The notes beneath the pieces are model-generated. The model made no database searches. It was not told where the DNA came from and saw only the letters and a program-made list of their open reading frames with translations. Positions 41,728 to 64,000 of a stretch of DNA of 64,000 nucleotides are shown here, one piece after another. The translations under genes and the position numbers were made by a program. How positions within the stretch are numbered: position 1 is the first letter of the stretch; every line of letters begins with the position of its first letter. Source of the stretch: Hyunsoonleella ulvae (GTDB lineage Bacteria; Bacteroidota; Bacteroidia; Flavobacteriales; Flavobacteriaceae); contig NZ_JAEPJQ010000002.1 of the NCBI RefSeq assembly GCF_016827605.1, forward strand, positions 310,001 to 374,000, in the 5' to 3' direction.

Positions 41728-41969
41728 TAAAGTTTTTTTTATAAAATATTTTCTTAAAGCTGAGAGATGCCTTTTGTAAAAAAGACTTTAGCTAAAAAAA
41801 AAGATTTTACATACAAAAAGTATCCTGTGCTATCCTGTTTTTAATTAAAATTTATAATACCCTTATAAATCAGAAAAAATAGTCACAGAAACATAGAAAT
41901 TTGTTAAGAGGGCTTATTTAATATTTGAAAATAAATATTTTAATCTATGTGAGTTTAGAGCACAAAAAA

Positions 41970-42066
41970 AGGCAAGCTACCTACATCACACCGCTACAAC
42001 CGTATACCTTTGCTGCGTTCCCGCCCTGGAGGATTCTACAGGAGCTGGTTGTGTAGGACTTGCCGG
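41970..42066 (-). ncRNA. ffs: Signal recognition particle RNA (small bacterial 4.5S type)
   Basis: This is the small SRP RNA that binds Ffh and guides membrane proteins. The minus strand reads from GGCAAGTCC to the complementary GGCTTGCC-like end, and the tip carries CCAGGGCGGGAACGCAGC, the Ffh-binding stem with asymmetric loop and tetraloop. The length is about 95 nt. A run of U follows the last stem and should terminate transcription. Confidence 0.92.
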
Positions 42067-42069
42067 CTG

Positions 42070-42099
42070 CAAAGATACAATCTTTTAAAATTTTCACAA
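42070..42099 (-). promoter_or_regulatory. Bacteroidota-type promoter of the SRP RNA
   Basis: On the minus strand TTG (42097-42099), a 19-base spacer, then TATCTTTG (42070-42077) match the consensus TTG-N19-TAnnTTTG. Transcription would start about 6 bp downstream, at the first base of the RNA. Confidence 0.85.
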
Positions 42100-52790: not shown

Positions 52791-55028
52791 TTAAAATCTT
52801 ACAGACACCTTACCTCTTAAAAAGAAAGGTACTCCTGGGGTAAAATGAATTTCCTCCACAGAATCGGCCTCATTAAACAATCTACTTTCTGTAGCAAATT
52901 GGGTTTCATTCCAATCTACATCAAAAAGGTTTTCTACTATTAAACCAAACGTCCAATTATCACAGTTGTAATTTAAATTTAAATCTGTAACAAAATAACC
53001 TTCTGCCACTATAGAGTTATCTTCATTAGCAGGACGGTCTTTGATGTAGCGGTAGCTAATACCTCCTGAAAAATTCCCTAAGTTATTAACTGTAAAGCCT
53101 CCTGCAGAAGTTAAATCTGGCGCAAGCGGAATAAAATCCTGTCCATCTGGTTCTTCTGTACTTCTGGCTACAGTGTAGTTTACATCGGTGTTAAAGTACA
53201 ACCAATCTGCTATTTGGTATCTTAAACCAAAATCTATACCGTATCGTGCTGTTTTTCCGCTAGGTTCTACAATAGCAGCATCTCCCACGTATACAAATTC
53301 TTGCTGTAAAAATAAGGACCAAAGTGCTGCGTTAATTACCAACTTATCTGTGGGTTTTATTACAGTTCCTAAATCTGTACTAAATGCTGTTGGTAATATT
53401 TGTTCCCCGCTTTGCGCAGTAACAACCCTAGAATCGTTAGAGTGATATCCCAAACCTGTTTTTAAGAAAAACTGAGTATTAGGTGCTGCCGCATAAATAA
53501 AATTTAATTTGGGACTTAGTAATGCTTTGTTTTCACTCTTGCTATCATAAAGTTCTGATAATAAATCCTCATAATCAAAAGTAAAATAATCCAAACGTAA
53601 ACCTGGGTTAATTGTCCATTTGTTTACTTTATATGTTAGGTCAGCAAAAGAAAACGCGTTTGTCTCATCTACATTACCATAAGCTAGTCTTTCCAGTAGT
53701 TCTTTTCTATTCTTGGTACGTGATAATTGGTTTTCGTTAACATCATCATATCTAAAGCCAACACCTACTCTATACTTTAGCTGCTTGTCGTGGTCGTCTA
53801 AATGCAGTGATTTTTCATATACACTTTTAGCCCCAATGATAGTACGTTCTTCAAACTGGCGAATCTGGTCTGCATTTATCGGATCATCTAAAAAGAAGGT
53901 AAAGTTTGAAAATAGTTCAAAATCATAATTAGACACATAGGCTGACGATGTTAAACTAGAATGCTCATCGAAATGCTTAATGTGATTCATCCAAATATTT
54001 GTTCTGCTGGTGTTTCCTCCTTCAGTGTCATCTATGGCTCCAAATCTACTTATCAAGCCTTGGTCTACAGCCCGCTGTGGTATCTGTCCAGAGGCATCCC
54101 ATTTACTTTGAAAATGGGAGAGCGATAGGTTAAATTCTTGATTCGCATAATTATTATAATTGTAACGGGCCATAATATTTAAGCGATTAAAATTTTGAGG
54201 AGATTCAAAAACTCCATCGGTAAGATTCATTTCACTTGCTACATAGGCATTACTATTCTCTCCATCCCAAATTTTTAACATACTTAAAGCCCTTACGGTA
54301 TTAAATTGACCTGCCTCTACAGAAATTAAGTTTTTATCAATTTTCGTTTTAGTTTTAATATCCACATAACCTGCCGTATTAAAATTACCTTTATCTGCAT
54401 AATAAGAGCCTTTGCCAAAATCTAAATTCTCGATAGTTTCTGGAATGATAAAATGCATATCTGCATATCCCTGTCCATGTGCGTGAGACACCATGTTTAC
54501 GGGCATTCCGTCTACATCTATGGCAATATCGGTACCATGATCAATATCAAAACCTCTTAAAAAGATTTGTTCTGCTTTACCACCTCCTGCATGTTGACCA
54601 ATAATTAAACCTGGAATCTTACGAAGAATTTCTTGCGATGATTTTACAGGACTTGTTTTCACATCTACATTAACAATATTACTCAATACATTTACCTTAG
54701 AAACGATTAATACTTGCTCTAAAGATGCAGAGGAAATTTCCATAATAACCTCAATTGTACTATCTAAATGGGATTCATCAATTGTAAGTTGGTAGTTCTC
54801 ATATCCTAATTGGTAAAAATAAATAACGTCTCCAACAGATATATCGTCAATTTCAAAATATCCTGATACATTTGTGTATGTATATGTTCCTGTATTCTTA
54901 TTGTAAACCCCAACACCTTGTAAGGGCTTCTCATTATCTTCTGAAATTACTGTTCCGTTAAGTTCATGGGCATTAACTACCCCTACAGTTAACATAAAGA
55001 CCAGTAATACTGTAACTTTTTTTAACAT
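52791..55028 (-). CDS. TonB-dependent receptor
   Basis: This is an outer-membrane ligand-gated channel of ~745 residues from the ATG at 55028 (a frame to 55073 adds non-signal residues). The signal peptide ends V-N-A-H. A carboxypeptidase-like domain (about 22-105) carries G-V-G-V-Y-N-K-N-T-G. The plug domain has Q-I-F-L-R-G-F-D-I-D-H-G-T and V-D-G-M-P-V-N-M-V-S-H-A-H-G-Q-G-Y-A-D, and is followed by a 22-strand barrel ending F-F-L-R-G-K-V-S-V-R-F. The His-rich plug loop suggests a metal or metallophore. It is the last gene of the left arm of the NRPS cluster. Confidence 0.92.
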   Translation of the reverse strand: MLKKVTVLLVFMLTVGVVNAHELNGTVISEDNEKPLQGVGVYNKNTGTYTYTNVSGYFEIDDISVGDVIYFYQLGYENYQLTIDESHLDSTIEVIMEISSASLEQVLIVSKVNVLSNIVNVDVKTSPVKSSQEILRKIPGLIIGQHAGGGKAEQIFLRGFDIDHGTDIAIDVDGMPVNMVSHAHGQGYADMHFIIPETIENLDFGKGSYYADKGNFNTAGYVDIKTKTKIDKNLISVEAGQFNTVRALSMLKIWDGENSNAYVASEMNLTDGVFESPQNFNRLNIMARYNYNNYANQEFNLSLSHFQSKWDASGQIPQRAVDQGLISRFGAIDDTEGGNTSRTNIWMNHIKHFDEHSSLTSSAYVSNYDFELFSNFTFFLDDPINADQIRQFEERTIIGAKSVYEKSLHLDDHDKQLKYRVGVGFRYDDVNENQLSRTKNRKELLERLAYGNVDETNAFSFADLTYKVNKWTINPGLRLDYFTFDYEDLLSELYDSKSENKALLSPKLNFIYAAAPNTQFFLKTGLGYHSNDSRVVTAQSGEQILPTAFSTDLGTVIKPTDKLVINAALWSLFLQQEFVYVGDAAIVEPSGKTARYGIDFGLRYQIADWLYFNTDVNYTVARSTEEPDGQDFIPLAPDLTSAGGFTVNNLGNFSGGISYRYIKDRPANEDNSIVAEGYFVTDLNLNYNCDNWTFGLIVENLFDVDWNETQFATESRLFNEADSVEEIHFTPGVPFFLRGKVSVRF

Positions 55029-55103
55029 AAAAATATGATTACGCACAAGAATAATGGAGTACCCAATACCCAAAGTGCAATTATTTAATTTTAATTGTTT
55101 TGT

Positions 55104-55135: not shown

Positions 55136-55606
55136 TTAAGATACCTGTGGCGGTTGTAGCGGACTATTTAAATATCCTAAACGTGTTTGTTTGGTAATGA
55201 AAACTATAATTTTATTTTGTTCTAGCGGTAACAAAACCAGAGGTCTTTTGTACTTTTTTTGATACTGTGTATGTTTATCTATTTTTAGTGCCAAAACAAT
55301 GGAATCTTCAGAATTCTTTTCTGTATCTATATCTTCTAATAGGTCATTGAGCAAATTAAGGAGTTGATGGCTGTGAATATCTTTTGAAGTTAGCACCTCG
55401 TGGTCTGAATGTATTTTTTCACTTCTCTTTCTATCAATGTCTGAATGCGATACTATATAATCTGGTATTTCCAACAAATGCGTAACTTCATGAAGAAACA
55501 CACCTACTTCCTTGTGCAGGGGGCCAAGCAAATAAGATGCACTTAATAGCACAACCAATACTCTCAAAATAAATGGCTTAAAGCCTTTTGATTTCTTAAT
55601 CTTCAT
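55136..55606 (-). CDS. Small membrane protein with an HEVTH motif
   Basis: This 156-residue protein has one hydrophobic segment (about 11-30) and then V-F-L-H-E-V-T-H-L-L-E, which fits the HExxH zinc-protease signature. A His-rich stretch (S-D-H-E-V and I-H-S-H-Q) follows. The chain is short for a metalloprotease, and no third ligand is obvious. It may instead be a metal-binding accessory. It overlaps the NRPS 3' end by 11 bp, so it is part of that operon. No family is recognised. Confidence 0.55.
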   Translation of the reverse strand: MKIKKSKGFKPFILRVLVVLLSASYLLGPLHKEVGVFLHEVTHLLEIPDYIVSHSDIDRKRSEKIHSDHEVLTSKDIHSHQLLNLLNDLLEDIDTEKNSEDSIVLALKIDKHTQYQKKYKRPLVLLPLEQNKIIVFITKQTRLGYLNSPLQPPQVS

Positions 55607-58600
55607 TTAATAATTCCGTGAGGGTACTTTCTATATATTTTGAATACGCATCTATGGTAGGTAGGTTGAACACCTTGTTAAGGGGTAACTCTAGCTCTAA
55701 TTCTTCATTTATGCGAGAGGTAACCCTAATCGCTGCTAAAGAATGCCCACCAAGAGCAATAAAATTATCATAAACCCCAATTTTTTCAAGTCGTAACACT
55801 TCCTTCCACACACCCTCTACCATATCTTCAATTTCGTTTCTTGGAGCTACATAAGACACCTCCATTTCTAATTGTTCAACAGTTAAACTTCTTAGCGATT
55901 TTTTATCAGTTTTTCCATTTTTTGTAAGTGGCATTTGGTCGATATTCTTAAATACTGAGGGCACCATATACGATGGAATCTTGCTCGCCAAATATTGCTT
56001 TAGTTCTTTTTGGGTTATGCTTATATTTCCTGTATAATAAGCCACAAGTTTTTCATCTTCTGTAAAATCATCAGAGTCTTCATAACCTATTTCCTTCATA
56101 ATACGCTTAACTTCTGGCTCATGAATATACTCATTTATTTCTTCTAAACTTTCATCTCTGGTTTTATGACCTAATCGTACATCCCAACTGTAAGGAAACG
56201 AGTAATTACTATATCCCAGTTCTTTTTTATGAACATAAATACCAACTTGGTTGATTAAGCAATTTGTTGATCTGCCAGTATCTGTAGGCCTAACCCATCC
56301 CACCTTCTCGTTTAAAAATTTTAACATATCCTCCAGACTAACATCTGAATACCTGTAAAAATCAATAAACTGTACTTTGTCAAAAACCTCATCAGTCTCA
56401 AACATGGAAACATCCAAGAGTTTTTTTACAGCATCCTCTTCTTGATGATAAAGCTTACGAACTTCTAAGATTGTATCATCAATTTTAGTTACATCTAAAT
56501 CTTCATCCCAAAACAATTCTTCAGTTAAGCGCGTCTCAAAAAACTGTCCTCGAGATAATCCTGTAACAATAAAAGGAATCTTGTGCTCTAGGGCAATCTT
56601 AGTACTTAAGGTATAGATGGTTTTAAAGCAACCATTGCACACATTTTTGTGCCGTTTTAAACTATCTACAAAAATGGCATTCATATATTCGGTTTCCCCA
56701 TAAATATGATCTACGCCCAATCTGTCTACTATACGATCTATATTGGCTTTTGCCTGATCTGAAATATACCCATTATCAAGCGTAAAGGCCAAAACCTTCA
56801 TACCCATATTTACCAATTGTGCTAAGATGTACGTACTATCCTTACCTCCACTTAATAATGATAAACAATCATACTTAGGATTTGTACCTTTGGTGGCTAA
56901 TAAAATTTCTTTTAATTCTTCCTCTGTTTTAAAATAACGTTGGGCTTTTTCTTTATAGCCCTTAAAAGTATTGCAAAGGTTACACACACCATGTTCATCA
57001 AAGTCTGTTTGTGGATAATTAGAGGGTAGACCACACTCTGTACAATTTACTACTTGTGCCTCTGGAATGTGATCTTTCTTATTATCGACCAATACTACGG
57101 CGCAATCATCAATACCTTCATAATTGGCTAAATTGGCCTCAATATCGGTTAGTTCAATTCTGTAACCCCTAAGTTTTATTTGCTCATCAAACCTACCTAA
57201 GTACTCGTACTCACCATTTTTATTGATTCGTGCTACATCTCCGGTATGATACATTTTCTCTCCTGCCACGAAAGGGTTATCAATAAATTTACTGTTAGAT
57301 AAATCTTCAAGTTTTAAATAGCCATTGGCAAGACTGCGACCACTTAAATATAACTTACCCATTACACCATGAGGTACTAAATTATGGCAATCATCAAGAA
57401 TGTAGGCATGCATGTTAGAAATGGGATAACCTATTGGAACAGAAACCTCATCTTCATGTCTAGTAATATCAAATTTACTTACAATACAGCCAACAGTAGC
57501 TTCAGTTGGCCCGTATTCATTATAAATTGCTATTTTATTATCGTACTTTTTTGAGATTGTACTTGCTAGGTTAACCTTAAAATCCTCGCCCCCAACTATC
57601 ATTGTATGTATAATTGAGCTAGATAGATCTCTATCTTTCAAAAATGACAAATGCGATGGCGTTAATTTAATCGTGTTTACCAGATTATCTGCCAAAACTT
57701 GTATTAAAGACATATCGGGGCCAAAAATATTTTCGGTGTAGAGCATTAATCTACCTCCACTTACAAAAGGTAATAATGTTGATGTTATTGTTAAATCAAA
57801 CCCTATAGAGGTAAATAAAGGTAGAACAGTTTTATTAGTGATACCGTAATAATCCTTGGCCCAAAAAATATAATTTGAAAGTGCTTCATGAGATATCAAA
57901 ACTCCCTTTGGGTTCCCTGTTGATCCAGATGTGTACAACACGTATGCTAAACTGGCAGAAGTCAAAACTGCTCTTAAATTTTCTTCAGATTGAATTTTAA
58001 GTGTTTCTTTAATCTCTTCCAAATCAATGTTTGCAACATCAATACCTTCCAGATGCTTTTGCAATGTACCCTCAGTTAATATTAGAGAAGCTTCAGAATT
58101 GGAAATTATAAACGCAACACGTTCTTTAGGTTGATCTGAAGCTATAGGGATAAAAGTTCCCCCTAACTTCATAATGGCCAAAACCCCCAAAATATAGTTG
58201 GTATTACGGTAATTAAGCAGCACCACCTTATCATTGGCTCTAACTCCCCGCTCAAATAAATAATGCGCTAGCTGATTTGCTTTCTTGTTTAATCCATTAA
58301 ATGTTAATGTTTCATTTTTAGATTGGACAGCTATCGCATTGGGGTATTCCTTTGCCAAGCGTTGAAAAACATCAAGAACATTATTTAAGGCATTACCTGA
58401 TATAGGTGGGCTTAAAAAGAAGTTTTGTTCTTCATCAGTACTTATAGATGCGCCTTGTATAGGTTTATTTATATCTCTTACAAAATTATCAAATAATTTT
58501 TCCACATGATTTATTGAAGATGAAGCCTTTTGCGCATCAGCTATATCATTATTATAATCTATAATAACCTTTGATGACCCTTTTTGGTTAAAGTTACATA

Positions 58601-59738
58601 CGTGAAATCGCATTTTATGCCCAGGATCAGCATGTTCAGGATGCATCCAATTTACTTCTGTTTCTAGTCCTGCAAAATCTCCAAAACTGGAATTAATATA
58701 ATTAAATATTGTGATAAAGCTTCTACTCAACTTGGCAGATGATGTGCCTGTAAGTCCATTTTTTAAGTAGTTATTAGTCTCAATTTTAACTTTTTTAAAT
58801 AAGGATAAAAAAGTATCCTCATCATCTACCTCAACTGCAAGGGGTAACATTTCTATAAATAAACCTGCCGTTTTGATAAAACTTTGCTTAATACGGTTAT
58901 GTATTGGCGCTCCTACCACTAACTTTTTTTGCCCACTTATTCTAAACATGTAAGCAAATAGTAAAGTTCCAAAAATCATAAAATTGGCTACATCATTGTT
59001 CCAAAATGAAATGTTTTGATCCTTTAATTTCTGCCTTATTGCATCTAATTCATCATTGCCTACTTCAAATTCAACCCTGTTGGAGGTTGTGCTAAGTCCT
59101 TGTAATCGCTTTTTACCGTATAAGGCTGGTGTTTCGTTAAAAGATGCTATCTTTTCTTCCCATTGTGTGGTAATCTCTACATTTTTAATCCGTTCTTCTT
59201 GTTCATATTTAACAAACTCTGAGTATGCAGGCATGGGAACCATAGGCGCACCTTTGTTCTGAAGTAATATATTATATATAGATGCTAATGCATTGAATAA
59301 GATTACAGAACTGGATGCATCTGTTATGATATGATGTATGTTGAGGTACCAAATGTAATTTTCATCTGAAGTTTTTAATAGTGCACTATAAAATAGTTGT
59401 TGTGATAGGTTAAATGGTTGGGAGCTTTTTTGTTTTAACCACACACTTAGTTCCGCACTACTTTGCCTAGAAAAATCTATCAACTCAATGCTTTTAACAT
59501 ATGGTGTTGTTCTCTGCTTGGGTTGGTTATTCTCCTCCTCTATTACAGTTCGTAAAATATCTGTAGACTCAATCAACCTATCAAAAGCTAGCTTAAAAAC
59601 ATCATGGTCAACATTACCTTTAATGTTAAAGGCATAAGGTACATTGTTAATAGGGGTATTAGGATTGAGCTTATCTACCAACCATAACGATGTTTGGCTT
59701 TTAGTAAGTGGTAATAGAGATTGGTTATTTAAATGCAT
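55596..59738 (-). CDS. NRPS C-A(PP-loop insertion)-T
   Basis: This 1380-residue nonribosomal peptide synthetase module has a condensation domain (about 10-430) with HHIITD at 135 (usual HHxxxDG, Gly replaced by Ala), then an adenylation domain with the A3 loop YTSGSTGNPKG near 602, A5 NEYGPTEA, A8 RGYRIE near 857 and A10 K in LTKNGKTDKKS near 1275. A thiolation domain carries GGHS near 1332. About 345 residues between A8 and A10 form a full PP-loop amidotransferase-like domain: a zinc-type C-T-E-C-G and C-N-L-C near 897-915, S-G-G-K-D-S-T near 962, and C-N-G-C near 1032. A4 Asp in G-F-D-L-T suggests an alpha-amino acid substrate. Confidence 0.88.
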   Translation of the reverse strand: MHLNNQSLLPLTKSQTSLWLVDKLNPNTPINNVPYAFNIKGNVDHDVFKLAFDRLIESTDILRTVIEEENNQPKQRTTPYVKSIELIDFSRQSSAELSVWLKQKSSQPFNLSQQLFYSALLKTSDENYIWYLNIHHIITDASSSVILFNALASIYNILLQNKGAPMVPMPAYSEFVKYEQEERIKNVEITTQWEEKIASFNETPALYGKKRLQGLSTTSNRVEFEVGNDELDAIRQKLKDQNISFWNNDVANFMIFGTLLFAYMFRISGQKKLVVGAPIHNRIKQSFIKTAGLFIEMLPLAVEVDDEDTFLSLFKKVKIETNNYLKNGLTGTSSAKLSRSFITIFNYINSSFGDFAGLETEVNWMHPEHADPGHKMRFHVCNFNQKGSSKVIIDYNNDIADAQKASSSINHVEKLFDNFVRDINKPIQGASISTDEEQNFFLSPPISGNALNNVLDVFQRLAKEYPNAIAVQSKNETLTFNGLNKKANQLAHYLFERGVRANDKVVLLNYRNTNYILGVLAIMKLGGTFIPIASDQPKERVAFIISNSEASLILTEGTLQKHLEGIDVANIDLEEIKETLKIQSEENLRAVLTSASLAYVLYTSGSTGNPKGVLISHEALSNYIFWAKDYYGITNKTVLPLFTSIGFDLTITSTLLPFVSGGRLMLYTENIFGPDMSLIQVLADNLVNTIKLTPSHLSFLKDRDLSSSIIHTMIVGGEDFKVNLASTISKKYDNKIAIYNEYGPTEATVGCIVSKFDITRHEDEVSVPIGYPISNMHAYILDDCHNLVPHGVMGKLYLSGRSLANGYLKLEDLSNSKFIDNPFVAGEKMYHTGDVARINKNGEYEYLGRFDEQIKLRGYRIELTDIEANLANYEGIDDCAVVLVDNKKDHIPEAQVVNCTECGLPSNYPQTDFDEHGVCNLCNTFKGYKEKAQRYFKTEEELKEILLATKGTNPKYDCLSLLSGGKDSTYILAQLVNMGMKVLAFTLDNGYISDQAKANIDRIVDRLGVDHIYGETEYMNAIFVDSLKRHKNVCNGCFKTIYTLSTKIALEHKIPFIVTGLSRGQFFETRLTEELFWDEDLDVTKIDDTILEVRKLYHQEEDAVKKLLDVSMFETDEVFDKVQFIDFYRYSDVSLEDMLKFLNEKVGWVRPTDTGRSTNCLINQVGIYVHKKELGYSNYSFPYSWDVRLGHKTRDESLEEINEYIHEPEVKRIMKEIGYEDSDDFTEDEKLVAYYTGNISITQKELKQYLASKIPSYMVPSVFKNIDQMPLTKNGKTDKKSLRSLTVEQLEMEVSYVAPRNEIEDMVEGVWKEVLRLEKIGVYDNFIALGGHSLAAIRVTSRINEELELELPLNKVFNLPTIDAYSKYIESTLTELLNED

Positions 59739-59747
59739 ACTAATACG

Positions 59748-59990
59748 TTAATTTTTTACTTTGTTGATGTAACTTACCATATGCTCTATTGTCATAAAAT
59801 TTTCAGGTGTTATATCCTCGAAAGGGACTTGCACGTTGCTCTGTCTTTCAATAAAGCGCACTAAACGCATAAGCCCTAAGGAATTAATCGTACCATCCAT
59901 TAGCAATTCATCTTTTTTATTAATTACTGCAGAAGTATCTTCTAAAATTTCAGTTTTTATGAAGTGAATGAGGCGTTCTTCCATATCCAT
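59748..59990 (-). CDS. Stand-alone acyl/peptidyl carrier protein
   Basis: This 80-residue carrier protein has its phosphopantetheine serine in G-T-I-N-S-L-G-L-M-R-L. It precedes the NRPS gene by 9 bp and probably supplies an extra carrier or accepts a substrate in trans. The true start may be the second ATG two codons in. Confidence 0.85.
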   Translation of the reverse strand: MDMEERLIHFIKTEILEDTSAVINKKDELLMDGTINSLGLMRLVRFIERQSNVQVPFEDITPENFMTIEHMVSYINKVKN

Positions 59991-60319: not shown

Positions 60320-61555
60320 ATGCACAAGTTATTTTCCCAAATTCCCATACTCTTCATTGCATTTTTTACAACTATAAATGTTTGGGCACATCATCCTGAT
60401 AATAGCCTGATGTATTTAAAAGTTTATGAAAACGCAAATATTGAAGGCAATTTCCACATTAATGTAAACGAATTAAATGATGTTTTAGGCCTTGATTTGG
60501 GTAAACGTACCTCATTAGAAAAAGTAAAGCCTTACCTCGAGACTATAAAAACATATTTATTGGAAAACACATCATTTACCCATAATGACAAAGCATATAC
60601 AATAGAGTTTACTGATGATGTAGAAATTTGGAATGTTAGTTTTGGAGACTTTGTAGTGATACATTTTTTTTTGGAAGATTCTGCAAACGTTCCTGATGAG
60701 ATTGATGTTACCTATAAAGTATTTATAGAAGAGGAACCCCATCATGTTAATTTACTAGGTATTGAATATAATTGGAAAGCTGGACTTTTTAATAATGAGG
60801 CTATAATCGCTTTAGACTTTAATAAAAGTGATTGGACAAAAACCCTCTCATTAACTGAAGGCTCTATATGGCAAGGTTTTGTAGCAATGATAAAACAAGG
60901 AATATGGCATATATGGATAGGCTTAGATCATATACTCTTTATACTAGCACTTATTTTACCTGCAGTTGTTAGACGAAAAAATGACAATGAAGTAAAGTCT
61001 GGAATATGGAACTGGCACCCTGTAGAAAAATTTAAACCAGCATTTATATACATAGTAAAAATAATCACTTTTTTTACCATTGCCCATACTATAACATTAA
61101 GTTTAGCTTCATTACAAATTATCGTTTTGCCTTCTAGATTTGTTGAGTCCATCATAGCGCTCTCGATAGGTTTGGCTGCGCTACATAATATTAAACCAAT
61201 TTTTAAAGGTAAAGATTGGATTATCGCTTTTGTTTTTGGGCTATTCCACGGTTTTGGATTTGCCAGCGTTTTAGGTGAACTTGGGTTTAATGGTGAGCAT
61301 TTAACCTTATCGCTATTAGGATTTAATATTGGTGTGGAAATAGGCCAGTTGGTTATTATTGCTGCTATTTTCCCTATACTTTATTTTATAAGAAAGCTAA
61401 AACTATACCCTAAATTATTAATCTATTTATCAGCTCTATTAATTATAATCTCCTTGTATTGGCTTGTAGAACGCGCCTTTGATATCGATTTACCTGTAGA
61501 TGATTATATTAAATGGAAATTATATGAGCTTGCTGTTTGGTTAGGTTTAAGATAA
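60320..61555 (+). CDS. HupE/UreJ-like membrane protein
   Basis: This 411-residue protein has a signal peptide (about 1-23) after which the mature end begins HHPDNS. A periplasmic domain (to about 190) is followed by a polytopic C-terminal half with W-H-I-W-I-G-L-D-H-I-L-F and F-H-G-F-G-F-A-S, both typical of HupE/UreJ_2 proteins, whose relatives handle nickel or cobalt. The two histidine motifs are likely metal sites in the membrane. The next NRPS gene starts 9 bp later, so it is co-transcribed. Confidence 0.82.
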   Translation: MHKLFSQIPILFIAFFTTINVWAHHPDNSLMYLKVYENANIEGNFHINVNELNDVLGLDLGKRTSLEKVKPYLETIKTYLLENTSFTHNDKAYTIEFTDDVEIWNVSFGDFVVIHFFLEDSANVPDEIDVTYKVFIEEEPHHVNLLGIEYNWKAGLFNNEAIIALDFNKSDWTKTLSLTEGSIWQGFVAMIKQGIWHIWIGLDHILFILALILPAVVRRKNDNEVKSGIWNWHPVEKFKPAFIYIVKIITFFTIAHTITLSLASLQIIVLPSRFVESIIALSIGLAALHNIKPIFKGKDWIIAFVFGLFHGFGFASVLGELGFNGEHLTLSLLGFNIGVEIGQLVIIAAIFPILYFIRKLKLYPKLLIYLSALLIIISLYWLVERAFDIDLPVDDYIKWKLYELAVWLGLR

Positions 61556-61564
61556 ATATGCCCT

Positions 61565-64000
61565 ATGGAAAATAAAAAAAAAGGTTCTCTTCTTCAACAA
61601 TGGAAGGATAAAACTAAATCTGGTATTTCTAAAAATAGTATTGAAAAAGCTCCGAAGGATGTTATCATTCCTTTATCCTCAGGACAAAAAAGGCTTTGGT
61701 TCCTTCAACAACTCTATCCAGAAAATCCTTTTTACAATTACTCTGAAACCTATACTTTTAAAGGAAGTTTAGATATTGAATGCTTGTCTAAAAGTTTAAA
61801 AAAGGTCTATGAAACTCATGACATATTAAGAACTATATATATTCAAAACGATAAAGCCATCATTCAAAAAGTAGATTATGAATCTACCATGGACATAAAC
61901 ATATTTGATTTCTCTGATCTTGACAAAGACAAAGCAATTAGTGCTGCAAAGATTGAACAAAAAAGAGATGCAACTATGCATTTTTCTCTCGATAAGAGCC
62001 CTTTAGTTAGAGCCACGATTATTAAGATATCAGATACCTACCATATTCTTCAAATAACCTTGCATCACATTACTACAGACAAGTGGTCTATGAAAATCTT
62101 TAGGGAAGATCTTGCTGCATACTATAAAGAGTTTATAGATGGTAAAATACCAGATGATAGGAGAACACATTTGCAGTACACCGACTATTGTTATTGGATT
62201 GAAAACCAAGAAATAGACAAAAAAGCATTAGATTATTGGAAAGAAAAATTATTAGGAGAAATTCCAGAACTTACCCTACCTTATGATTTCCAAAGACCTA
62301 ATGTCCCTTCCTACAAAGGGGCTGCCTCATTTACCCAAAACTATCCTAAAGCTCTATCAGATAAGATATTTAAAATATCCCAAACATCTAAGACGACGCC
62401 TTATAATGTCATGCTAGCGGTATATTACATTTTTCTATACAAACTTAGTGGACAAAATGATATACTCATCGGTACACCTATTACCAATAGGGATAAAAAA
62501 AGTCTAGAAAATTTAATTGGCTTTTTTAATGATACTATTGTTTTAAGAGGAAAAATAAACCCTAATCTCAGCTTTACAGAGTTCATTGGTTACATTAAAA
62601 ACAATACTCTAGAAGCATTTGAAAATAAAAGTATCGCATTTGATACTCTTGTCAAAGAAATAGGTGTAAAACGTTCTTTAGCATCAAACCCTTTTTTTCA
62701 AGTAATGTTTCTTTACCATTCAAAACCAGAAAATCCATTTTTTTCCAGAGAATTAGAATTGTCTCACACTTGGTTTGATTCTGAAGTATCTAAATTTGAA
62801 CTTACTATCTACGTGGGAGAAGAAGATGGAATTTTAAGTTCTACTTTTGAGTATGCCCACGATTTATTTGAAGAAAAAACTATAAAACGCTTTCAAGATT
62901 ATTTCAAAACACTGATTTTTAATGTAACAGAAAACCCAAATATTGTAATTAATGATTTAGACATACTAACGGTTTCGCACACACGCTTAGCATCTAAAGA
63001 AAAAAAAGATAGTAATACATCTTCCCAAAACACAGGCATACATAATATTATTGAAAATATTAGTACAAGACACCCAGATAAAATTGCCGTATCTTATAAT
63101 AACACATCACTAACATATCTAGAACTTAATAACAGAGCCAATATGCTTGCTCATAAAATTAGAAATACCATTTCTAAAAGAAAGACAGTTATTGGTTTGT
63201 GTGTTGAAAGGCACCCTGATATGATAGTTGGTATTTTGGGAATCTTAAAAGCTGGATGTTGCTATCTGCCATTAGACCCTGAATATCCTAAAGACAGAAT
63301 TAATTTTATGTTAGAGGATTCTGGAGCAGAACTCATAGTTACACAATCACAACTGGAAAATTTATTTCTCGGGAAAACATATAATAGTGTTAAAATTGAC
63401 ACAATTGAAAGTATTACTAACACCCCTCTAGAATTACCTGAAATACATCCTGATGATTTGGCGTACATAATTTACACCTCTGGAAGTACTGGTAAACCTA
63501 AAGGCGTACCTATTTCGCATAAAAACATTATAGGCTCTACTATGGGCAGACTTAAATTTTATGAGGAAACCCCTAAGGCGTTTATGCTGATGTCATCTTT
63601 CTCATTCGATAGTTCTAAAGCAGGTATTTTTTGGACGCTTTGCACGGGTGGTAACCTAATTATTACAGAAAAACGTATTGAACAGGACATAGAAAAGATT
63701 GGTAACCTAATTAACGAAAAAAAGGTTACCCACACCTTGATGCTCCCATCCCTATATAGTCTAGTTTTAGACTATATTGATATTGAAAAACTTAAAAGCC
63801 TTAATACAGTAATTGTAGCTGGGGAAGCATGCAGTACTACTATGTGTAAAATACATTTTAGTGTGCTCCCTAAAGTAAATCTTTACAATGAATATGGACC
63901 AACTGAAGCATCCGTATGGTGTATAGCCCATAAAATTTCAATAGATGATTTAAAATTAAAAAGTATACCTATTGGTAAACCCGTAGCCGATGCACAAATT
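61565..64000 (+). CDS. NRPS, second synthetase (C-A..., cut by window edge)
   Basis: This gene runs from the ATG at 61565 off the right edge, with at least 812 codons. It begins with ~45 linker residues, then a condensation domain with L-H-H-I-T-T-D-K-W-S (Gly of HHxxxDG is Lys) and an adenylation domain with I-Y-T-S-G-S-T-G-K-P-K-G, S-F-S-F-D (A4 Asp, hence an alpha-amino acid) and N-E-Y-G-P-T-E-A near the edge. It follows the HupE-like gene by 9 bp and acts with the other NRPS of the cluster. Confidence 0.92.
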   Translation, partial: MENKKKGSLLQQWKDKTKSGISKNSIEKAPKDVIIPLSSGQKRLWFLQQLYPENPFYNYSETYTFKGSLDIECLSKSLKKVYETHDILRTIYIQNDKAIIQKVDYESTMDINIFDFSDLDKDKAISAAKIEQKRDATMHFSLDKSPLVRATIIKISDTYHILQITLHHITTDKWSMKIFREDLAAYYKEFIDGKIPDDRRTHLQYTDYCYWIENQEIDKKALDYWKEKLLGEIPELTLPYDFQRPNVPSYKGAASFTQNYPKALSDKIFKISQTSKTTPYNVMLAVYYIFLYKLSGQNDILIGTPITNRDKKSLENLIGFFNDTIVLRGKINPNLSFTEFIGYIKNNTLEAFENKSIAFDTLVKEIGVKRSLASNPFFQVMFLYHSKPENPFFSRELELSHTWFDSEVSKFELTIYVGEEDGILSSTFEYAHDLFEEKTIKRFQDYFKTLIFNVTENPNIVINDLDILTVSHTRLASKEKKDSNTSSQNTGIHNIIENISTRHPDKIAVSYNNTSLTYLELNNRANMLAHKIRNTISKRKTVIGLCVERHPDMIVGILGILKAGCCYLPLDPEYPKDRINFMLEDSGAELIVTQSQLENLFLGKTYNSVKIDTIESITNTPLELPEIHPDDLAYIIYTSGSTGKPKGVPISHKNIIGSTMGRLKFYEETPKAFMLMSSFSFDSSKAGIFWTLCTGGNLIITEKRIEQDIEKIGNLINEKKVTHTLMLPSLYSLVLDYIDIEKLKSLNTVIVAGEACSTTMCKIHFSVLPKVNLYNEYGPTEASVWCIAHKISIDDLKLKSIPIGKPVADAQI

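What the first reader, a model, noticed from the sequence alone, without database searches (positions are those of the whole stretch)
55596..59738. NRPS adenylation domain interrupted by a complete PP-loop amidotransferase-like domain
Between A8 (RGYRIE) and A10 (KNGKTD) of the adenylation domain lie about 345 residues with SGGKDST, a CxxC...CxxC pair and CNGC. These match PP-loop enzymes of the sugar amidotransferase/TtuA-like type. Interrupted A domains are known with methyltransferase, reductase or oxidase insertions; I know of none described with a PP-loop ATPase. Such an enzyme could turn a bound acyl or aminoacyl group into an amide, amidine or thioamide, so an unusual peptide is possible.
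Basis: partly seen in the sequence, partly recalled or inferred. Interest (0 to 1): 0.88.

Follow-up and report, generated by a model that had tools for sequence, protein, structure and literature searches.

The report
Asparagine-modifying enzyme inside peptide synthetase
A marine bacterium's peptide-building enzyme carries, inside its asparagine-loading part, a second ATP-using domain of a kind already known from the antibiotics albicidin and cystobactamid, where it turns asparagine into a nitrile or an isomer; here it sits in an apparently undescribed gene cluster that looks like a metal-scavenging system.

Summary
The 1380-aa ORF at 55596-59738(-) is C-A-T, with 338 residues inserted in the A domain between A8 and A10. 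They carry a PP-loop (SGGKDST), CxxC...CxxC and CNGC. It is intact: the 28 of 397 family genomes that match hold it in a 1373-1426-aa frame.

The novelty claim is wrong. The architecture was characterised in 2021 as the AMDH (aminomutase/amide dehydratase) domain of CysH (cystobactamid) and proposed earlier for AlbIV (albicidin): carrier-bound Asn becomes beta-cyanoalanine or isoasparagine. The A-domain code here, DLTKIGEVGK, is the one reported for AlbIV. Amidine or thioamide is not the first guess.

New here: (1) an elongation module in a conserved Bacteroidota cluster (also on a Roseovarius plasmid) with a His-code second module, HupE/UreJ protein and, in Bacteroidota, a TonB receptor: candidate metallophore pathway. 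(2) Unlike 28 of 28 sugar-amidotransferase-like relatives, AMDH has CNGC 71 residues after the PP-loop plus a distal Cys; CNGC aligns with a CxxC of [4Fe-4S] LarE. This could explain why purified CysH is brown. (3) Congeners have the Asn module without AMDH, or a Ser module.

The parts
55596..59738 (-). NRPS1: C-A(AMDH)-T, 1380 aa
58422..59723 (-). Condensation domain (residues 6-439); the H, H and D of HHxxxD kept in 37 of 37 rows
57084..58367 (-). Adenylation domain, N-terminal core (about 458-885), code DLTKIGEVGK = Asn (9 of 9 in the first set; 31 of 37 rows in the wider set, the other 6 differ at one position each)
   Evidence: code meaning from PMC12283262
56064..57077 (-). AMDH-type PP-loop insert, residues 888-1225 (core used for searches 896-1221)
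57033..57044 (-). first CxxC (899/902), shared with sugar-amidotransferase-like proteins
56973..56984 (-). second CxxC (919/922)
56832..56852 (-). PP-loop SGGKDST (963-969)
56628..56639 (-). CNGC (1034-1037), predicted iron-sulfur ligands; CxxC starts 71 residues after the PP-loop in 36 of 36 AMDH rows; no CxxC at +55..+95 in 28 of 28 sugar-amidotransferase-like rows
56259..56261 (-). Cys1160 (STNC motif), predicted third ligand, C in 37 of 37 rows
55869..56063 (-). Adenylation C-terminal subdomain (1226-1290) with A10 Lys1276 (KNGKTD)
55632..55814 (-). Thiolation (PP-binding) domain; modified Ser present in 37 of 37 rows
59748..59990 (-). stand-alone carrier-protein-like ORF, 80 aa, directly upstream; no Pfam hit at 1e-3, assigned by place and by similarity to carrier-like ORFs of related loci
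55136..55606 (-). 156-aa protein with a hydrophobic N-terminal stretch and conserved His (H39, H43, H54, H78, H80, H112; 25-29 of 29 rows); homologues in 29 of 34 loci; no Pfam or NCBIfam match
52791..55073 (-). TonB-dependent outer-membrane receptor, 760 aa; a gene labelled as its homologue in 34 of 34 loci (BLAST label, orthology not tested)
60320..61555 (+). HupE/UreJ family membrane protein (PF13795), divergent; in 31 of 34 loci, missing only in the 3 Cyclobacteriaceae stretches
61565..64000 (+). NRPS2 first gene (968 aa, runs out of the window): C-A with His code DSALIAEVW; A domain ends after A8 and goes on in a later gene

Best explanation
The insert is an AMDH-type domain. The host A domain selects L-Asn and loads it on its own T domain. 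The inserted PP-loop domain binds ATP and adenylates the side-chain carboxamide oxygen of Asn-S-T. Loss of AMP then gives beta-cyano-L-alanine-S-T, or by rearrangement isoasparagine. The C domain joins this residue to an upstream acyl group from a separate carrier protein (in relatives probably proline-derived), and a second His-selecting module extends it. The cluster most likely makes a short His-containing metallophore. Shown here: architecture, intactness, codes, conservation, clade, gene neighbourhood. Shown elsewhere (CysH, PMC7966384): loss of 18 Da from Asn-loaded CysH, dependent on the domain. Inferred: the reaction in this protein, AMP-imidate chemistry, a [4Fe-4S] site at C1034/C1037/C1160, and the metallophore role.
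For: Asn code DLTKIGEVGK, the code reported for AlbIV, whose A domain has a 342-aa nucleotide alpha-hydrolase-like insertion thought to make cyanoalanine. AlbIV prefers Asn and its insert carries SGGKD (review). CysH: a 38-kDa inserted domain, 69% identical to that of AlbIV; Asn-CysH loses 18 Da, CysH without AMDH does not; purified CysH is dark brown. The 36 AMDH rows form one group apart from 27 sugar-amidotransferase-like rows (99/98; long branches L023 and the Streptomyces row flagged). Fold neighbours include NcsA with [4Fe-4S] (Z 13.3, rmsd 4.2, 190 aligned), nitrile synthetase ArtA (12.9, 2.9, 166) and LarE with [4Fe-4S] (12.7, 3.4, 161). The best sequence match in the PDB is [4Fe-4S] LarE 8cnz (4e-7), with CNGC aligned to its CYNC. 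Module-2 His code in 24 of 24 rows compared (22 Bacteroidota loci, the window's reference copy again, Roseovarius); DSALIAEVWK is among the His codes of PMC12283262. Receptor label in 34 of 34 loci, HupE in 31 of 34.
Against: No direct alignment with CysH or AlbIV was made (CysH could not be reached, AlbIV was not fetched), so membership rests on architecture, code, size and motifs. The closest curated family is still the sugar amidotransferase one, and 8wex of that family is the top fold match (Z 14.2, rmsd 5.6, 280 aligned). Fold models are modest (mean pLDDT 71.6 and 69.0), and MnmA, LarE, NAD, GMP and argininosuccinate synthetases score about as high as ArtA, so fold does not choose the reaction. 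The CxxC match to LarE shows two of three ligands, and HHalign with TtcA did not reach those columns. CysH and AlbIV are stand-alone A-T modules, this is C-A-T. HupE was found in 4 of 4 genomes with the synthetase and 0 of 6 with the receptor but no complete synthetase beside it, which is awkward for a simple uptake role. The window genome has no starter ligase nearby and no OCD homologue at 1e-10. TonB receptors are common in Bacteroidota (recalled).
Confidence: 0.82

Rival explanations
1. The domain acts mainly as an Asn aminomutase, so that isoasparagine is the residue incorporated.
For: CysH does both; deleting its AMDH domain abolishes isoAsn products as well as cyanoalanine products (PMC7966384).
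Against: In CysH the choice depends on the hydroxylase CysJ; a PhyH-type dioxygenase is beside the module in 3 of 34 loci only, the Cyclobacteriaceae (other hydroxylase families were not looked for). PMC7966384 knew of no albicidin with isoAsn.
Confidence: 0.2
2. It is an amidine- or thioamide-forming domain: a sugar-amidotransferase-like or LarE/TtuA-like enzyme turning the Asn amide or the peptide bond into an amidine or thioamide.
For: Nearest curated family is N-acetyl sugar amidotransferase and so is the top fold match; the CNGC and distal Cys resemble sulfur-inserting [4Fe-4S] PP-loop enzymes. A HisH glutaminase gene lies about 12 kb from the NRPS on the Roseovarius plasmid, though among polysaccharide genes.
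Against: Scores below the family cut-off (142 of 203 bits) and lies outside the group of relatives. CysH, the characterised enzyme of the same architecture, dehydrates. No ammonia- or sulfur-donor gene among the neighbours given to Pfam; many neighbours were not annotated.
Confidence: 0.1
3. The cluster product is an antibiotic or signal rather than a metallophore.
For: Known AMDH products, albicidin and cystobactamid, are topoisomerase inhibitors. HupE follows the synthetase, not the receptor. No receptor gene is listed in the Roseovarius stretch.
Against: A TonB receptor in 34 of 34 Bacteroidota loci, a His-bearing small protein in 29 of 34, and a His module.
Confidence: 0.3
4. A degraded or misassembled fusion.
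For: None found.
Against: 28 of 28 matching family genomes have a frame of the same length class; key residues of C, A, AMDH and T are kept in 37 rows, apart from single substitutions at a few motif positions.
Confidence: 0.01

Closest known systems
AMDH domain of CysH (cystobactamid, myxobacteria)
   Same: domain of about 38 kDa inserted in an Asn-activating NRPS module; acts on T-bound Asn (PMC7966384, passages read)
   Different: CysH is a stand-alone A-T module feeding an assembly line through CysB; here C-A-T elongation module in another phylum, with receptor and HupE. Sequence identity not measured.
AlbIV insert (albicidin)
   Same: same A-domain code DLTKIGEVGK, 342-aa insertion, SGGKD motif (PMC12283262 and PMC8949500, passages read)
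   Different: stand-alone module for a p-aminobenzoate antibiotic; not fetched or aligned here
N-acetyl sugar amidotransferase, WbuX family TIGR03573 (PDB 8wex)
   Same: best curated profile and top fold match (Z 14.2, rmsd 5.6, 280 aligned); N-terminal CxxC...CxxC in 27 of 28 relatives, PP-loop
   Different: 142 of 203 bits needed; 0 of 28 relatives have a CxxC at +55..+95; separate group in the tree; acts on sugars (from the family name)
[4Fe-4S] PP-loop enzymes LarE, NcsA, TtuA, TtcA
   Same: PP-loop fold; CxxC at +67 from the PP-loop in 8cnz as aligned, +75 in E. coli TtcA, +71 here
   Different: sulfur insertion into tRNA or cofactor (from entry titles); family cut-offs not met; HHalign with TtcA aligned the PP-loop stretch only
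ATP-dependent nitrile synthetases ArtA, QueC/ToyM, PesC
   Same: proposed chemistry: amide to AMP-imidate to nitrile (PMC13060819, passages read)
   Different: free-standing enzymes of other PP-loop subfamilies; sequence matches weak (ArtA E 0.99; QueC 25 bits)

Membership tests
AMDH-interrupted Asn NRPS module | insertion into the A domain of an NRPS module, C-terminal half kept | tested here: met
   A8 RGYRIE before, A10 KNGKTD after; same-genus module without the insert aligns across residues 888-1225
AMDH-interrupted Asn NRPS module | host A domain specific for Asn, code as in AlbIV | tested here: met
   DLTKIGEVGK; meaning from PMC12283262; a code, not an assay
AMDH-interrupted Asn NRPS module | domain of about 342 aa / 38 kDa with SGGKD ATP-binding motif | tested here: met
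   338 residues between junctions, SGGKDST
AMDH-interrupted Asn NRPS module | sequence homology to the CysH and AlbIV domains themselves | not tested
AMDH-interrupted Asn NRPS module | dehydration or isomerisation of T-bound Asn | not testable with these tools
   needs purified protein and intact-protein MS
AMDH-interrupted Asn NRPS module | stand-alone A-T module (seen in CysH and AlbIV; not required of the domain) | tested here: not met
   C domain with HHxxxD precedes the A domain
N-acetyl sugar amidotransferase TIGR03573 | score over the curated cut-off of 203.2 bits | tested here: not met
   137 bits whole protein, 142.5 bits insert
N-acetyl sugar amidotransferase TIGR03573 | groups with family members in a tree | tested here: not met
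   36 AMDH rows separate from the 27 relatives used (of 28), 99/98; relatives come from the class search
QueC (PF06508 / TIGR00364) | curated cut-offs | tested here: inconclusive
   Pfam 25.6 over 22 bits, partial match; NCBIfam 25.2 of 150.3
[4Fe-4S] PP-loop enzymes (LarE/NcsA/TtuA/TtcA type) | three cysteines, a CxxC after the PP-loop and a distal one, binding a cluster (recalled) | tested here: inconclusive
   both Cys of CNGC and C1160 invariant in 37 rows, CNGC aligned to the CYNC of 8cnz; cluster itself untested, third Cys not aligned

The most novel reading that the evidence does not exclude
AMDH domains are iron-sulfur PP-loop enzymes, a TtuA/LarE-like [4Fe-4S] site recruited to amide dehydration, which would explain brown CysH and its unknown mechanism. 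In Bacteroidota and roseobacters they serve a previously undescribed family of acyl-(modified Asn)-His metallophores for Ni, Co or Cu, in which close relatives swap the middle residue (modified Asn, plain Asn, Ser) by losing the inserted domain or exchanging the module.
Probability: 0.3. Interest if true: 0.72.

Novelty: new member of a known kind. Interest (0 to 1): 0.46.

Why it matters
The mechanism of the AMDH domain was left open in 2021, with a brown colour that the authors could not assign (PMC7966384). The conserved CNGC plus Cys1160 gives specific residues to mutate. The same genus holds natural Asn modules with and without the domain in the same gene neighbourhood, which is a ready-made comparison of function and of how a domain can leave an A domain without breaking it. 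The conserved cluster is a candidate source of a new nitrile- or isoAsn-containing, His-bearing chelator in marine bacteria.

Tried and rejected
Rejected: 'no such NRPS described'. Rejected: sugar amidotransferase proper (below cut-off, separate group). Rejected: frameshift or misassembly. Considered and not adopted: amidine or thioamide product.

Led nowhere: papers on A domains with 'PP-loop' (one unrelated paper) or 'N-acetyl sugar amidotransferase' with NRPS (none); the review PMC11355689 (passages read) lists methylation, oxidase and ketoreductase insertions and does not hold the word amidotransferase; no RNA-family match near the cluster in the five sources searched (gathering threshold; only small SRP RNAs); OCD homologue in own genome: none at 1e-10; HHalign of the AMDH profile against E. 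coli TtcA aligned only 30 columns round the PP-loop, not the CxxC. The full A-AMDH-A model was poor (pLDDT 69, pTM 0.46) and was not used. The sigma/terminator scan, tandem-repeat and viral-contig searches were not used. In the first comparison with sugar-amidotransferase-like proteins only 1 of 28 was caught by my motif filter; redone with all 28. In the tree 27 of 28 were used, L025 left out as short. L078 and L088 were dropped from the neighbourhood counts as copies of L005 and L006. For the module-2 code 22 of 31 NRPS2 pieces over 300 aa were used; the 9 dropped are second halves or pieces cut at the locus edge that lack the region. My filter asked for NEYGPTE, which fixes one code position (E322), but no piece over 700 aa failed it. 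In the +197 check of the distal Cys my pattern missed one of 36 rows and one row has it at +188; the column itself is C in 37 of 37 NRPS rows. The genome searches score at most 5 candidates per genome in many rows, so counts are lower bounds.

Searches behind 'apparently undescribed cluster': only (PMC open-licence papers); passages were read of PMC4771312, the other papers new in those two lists were seen as listings. Absence from print is not shown. The 2020 review of interrupted A domains that I recalled was not held. Codes were read by motif anchoring to the ten recalled GrsA positions. The identity of the CysH and AlbIV domains is from PMC7966384, not measured.
Full report
Observation. 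The ORF at 55596-59738(-) encodes 1380 aa without internal stops. Pfam finds Condensation, AMP-binding, a weak QueC match, AMP-binding_C and PP-binding in that order along the protein. NCBIfam puts the insert nearest to N-acetyl sugar amidotransferase, under the cut-off. In 37 rows of the gene (35 different sequences) the eight cysteines of this insert are invariant, as are the first six PP-loop residues, the H, H and D of HHxxxD and the T-domain Ser.

Reality and spread. One scan of named genomes gave 8 relatives in Flavobacteriaceae and Cyclobacteriaceae. Of 395 genomes drawn from the class, 25 match the insert profile at 1e-20, but only the window's own is full length in a long frame; the others match 113-178 of 326 positions in frames of 370-806 aa and look like sugar amidotransferases. 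Of 397 genomes of the family, 28 (own included) match at 1e-60, all in frames of 1373-1426 aa. Plasmid records gave 16 matches. The top three sit with NRPS-type genes: Roseovarius at 52.0% (in an annotated NRPS), Pseudohalocynthiibacter at 52.6% (no gene listed under the match, but the same neighbours) and Streptomyces at 38%. The insert is better conserved than its host domains.

What it is. The A-domain code is DLTKIGEVGK in 31 of 37 rows; the other six differ at one position each. PMC12283262 (passages read) says that this code also goes with beta-cyanoalanine, within its Asp/Asn group, and that the corresponding domain of AlbIV has a 342-residue insertion probably of the nucleotide alpha-hydrolase superfamily. 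The review PMC8949500 (passages read) adds that AlbIV prefers Asn and that its insert carries SGGKD. PMC7966384 (abstract, outline and passages read) shows for CysH that the inserted domain, named AMDH, is needed for an 18-Da loss from bound Asn and for isoAsn formation, and says that homologous domains occur in several clusters of unknown function. The finding is therefore a new member of that kind.

Mechanism. The PP-loop suggests adenylation of the amide oxygen and elimination of AMP. [quoted passage not shown] many PP-loop enzymes score alike, so this does not decide). For albicidin phosphorylation of the amide oxygen was proposed instead. A further clue is the cysteine set. Sugar-amidotransferase-like relatives share the N-terminal CxxC...CxxC (27 of 28) but none of 28 has a CxxC 55-95 residues after the PP-loop; all 36 AMDH rows have one at +71, CNGC in all but one row. 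The best PDB sequence match of the insert profile is 8cnz (E 4e-7), titled mmLarE-[4Fe-4S]; its CYNC aligns with CNGC at +67. E. coli TtcA has C122/C125 at +75 (that they are cluster ligands is recalled). HHalign did not reach those columns. A [4Fe-4S] site made of C1034, C1037 and C1160 is thus a supported guess. It would fit the dark brown colour of purified CysH, where the authors looked for CxxCxxxC and found none.

Cluster. In 34 distinct Bacteroidota loci the labelled neighbours are a TonB receptor (34), HupE/UreJ protein (31; not in the 3 Cyclobacteriaceae stretches), His-bearing small protein (29), a second NRPS (28; some stretches end before it), AMP ligase (26), carrier protein (26), acyl-CoA dehydrogenase (11) and ornithine-cyclodeaminase-like gene (10) (labels by BLAST against reference genes I chose, orthology not tested; most stretches are about 20 kb). 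The dehydrogenase of one relative (L006) matches prolyl-ACP dehydrogenase 4irn best (2.5e-112); that of another (L003) matches the PigA and RedW models best though below their cut-offs. The L006 ligase matches linear gramicidin synthase rows first (two A domains, scores summed), then 8xjz, and L-proline ligase 6o6e seventh. A proline-derived starter is likely in those relatives, but the window's own cluster has neither gene and its starter is unknown. The second module reads DSAL[IMV]AEVW in 24 of 24 rows compared, one of which is the window's reference copy; PMC12283262 names DSALIAEVWK among its His codes. The Roseovarius plasmid has the same synthetase parts in one 2682-aa NRPS with HupE, dehydrogenase, ligase and carrier, but no receptor among the 20 listed features (that gene table is incomplete). 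HupE/UreJ proteins are described as nickel transporters (PMC4771312, passages read). The sum suggests a metallophore. Against a simple uptake role for HupE, it was found in 4 of 4 genomes with the synthetase and in 0 of 6 that have the receptor without a complete synthetase in the 20 kb round it (a synthetase elsewhere in those six was not excluded).

Natural variation. In the window's genus G521 has the Asn code without the insert (1048 aa), G783 an Asn A domain without insert followed by a Ser-code module (1807 aa), and G786 and G787 a Ser-code module (1047 and 1040 aa) at the corresponding place (the Ser meaning of DVWHFSLVDK is recalled). That the genus is Hyunsoonleella is inferred from a contig of the same length in L010 and same-genus G785. 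In an A-domain tree the two insert-free Asn domains fall inside the insert-bearing rows (7-row clade, 100/99; some inner forks weak), so loss is likelier than gain.

Verdict. Observation confirmed; interpretation partly supported; novelty of architecture refuted by print. What remains of interest is the iron-sulfur prediction, the natural presence/absence pairs and the candidate metallophore cluster.

Noticed in passing
window 61565-64000 and beyond (L013:16565-19471, L014:272-1858): The second NRPS's A domain is split after A8 into two genes (968 and 528 aa) with a 263-aa methyltransferase-like ORF between them (motif read by eye; no Pfam hit at 1e-3). BLAST labels place related ORFs or fragments beside NRPS2 in L080, L083 and L099 too.
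   Followed up: partly
L119:10954-16374: Congener with an 1807-aa chimera: C, Asn-code A without AMDH and (by eye) without an evident T, then C-like, Ser-code A and T; looks like a recombination product.
   Followed up: partly
L116, L120, L121, L126, L124, L125: Stretches with the TonB receptor (49-89% identical) but no complete synthetase beside it; L124 retains a 109-aa piece matching NRPS1. Possible users of a foreign metallophore.
   Followed up: partly
L046:16062-20112: Streptomyces plasmid: AMDH domain (38%) begins a separate 726-aa gene after an annotated NRPS gene that ends in A10- and T-like sequence (by eye), beside an asnB gene, which fits Asn chemistry.
   Followed up: partly
L044, L045: The same cluster, with mostly identical protein accessions, sits on plasmids of two roseobacter genera (one typed conjugative), beside polysaccharide genes and hisH: recent horizontal transfer.
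   Followed up: no
L007-L009: Cyclobacteriaceae versions lack HupE and the second NRPS within the stretches held and have a PhyH dioxygenase, perhaps an Asn hydroxylase like CysJ.
   Followed up: no
window 41966-42072 (-): Bacteroidales small SRP RNA (RF04183, 102.8 bits).
   Followed up: no
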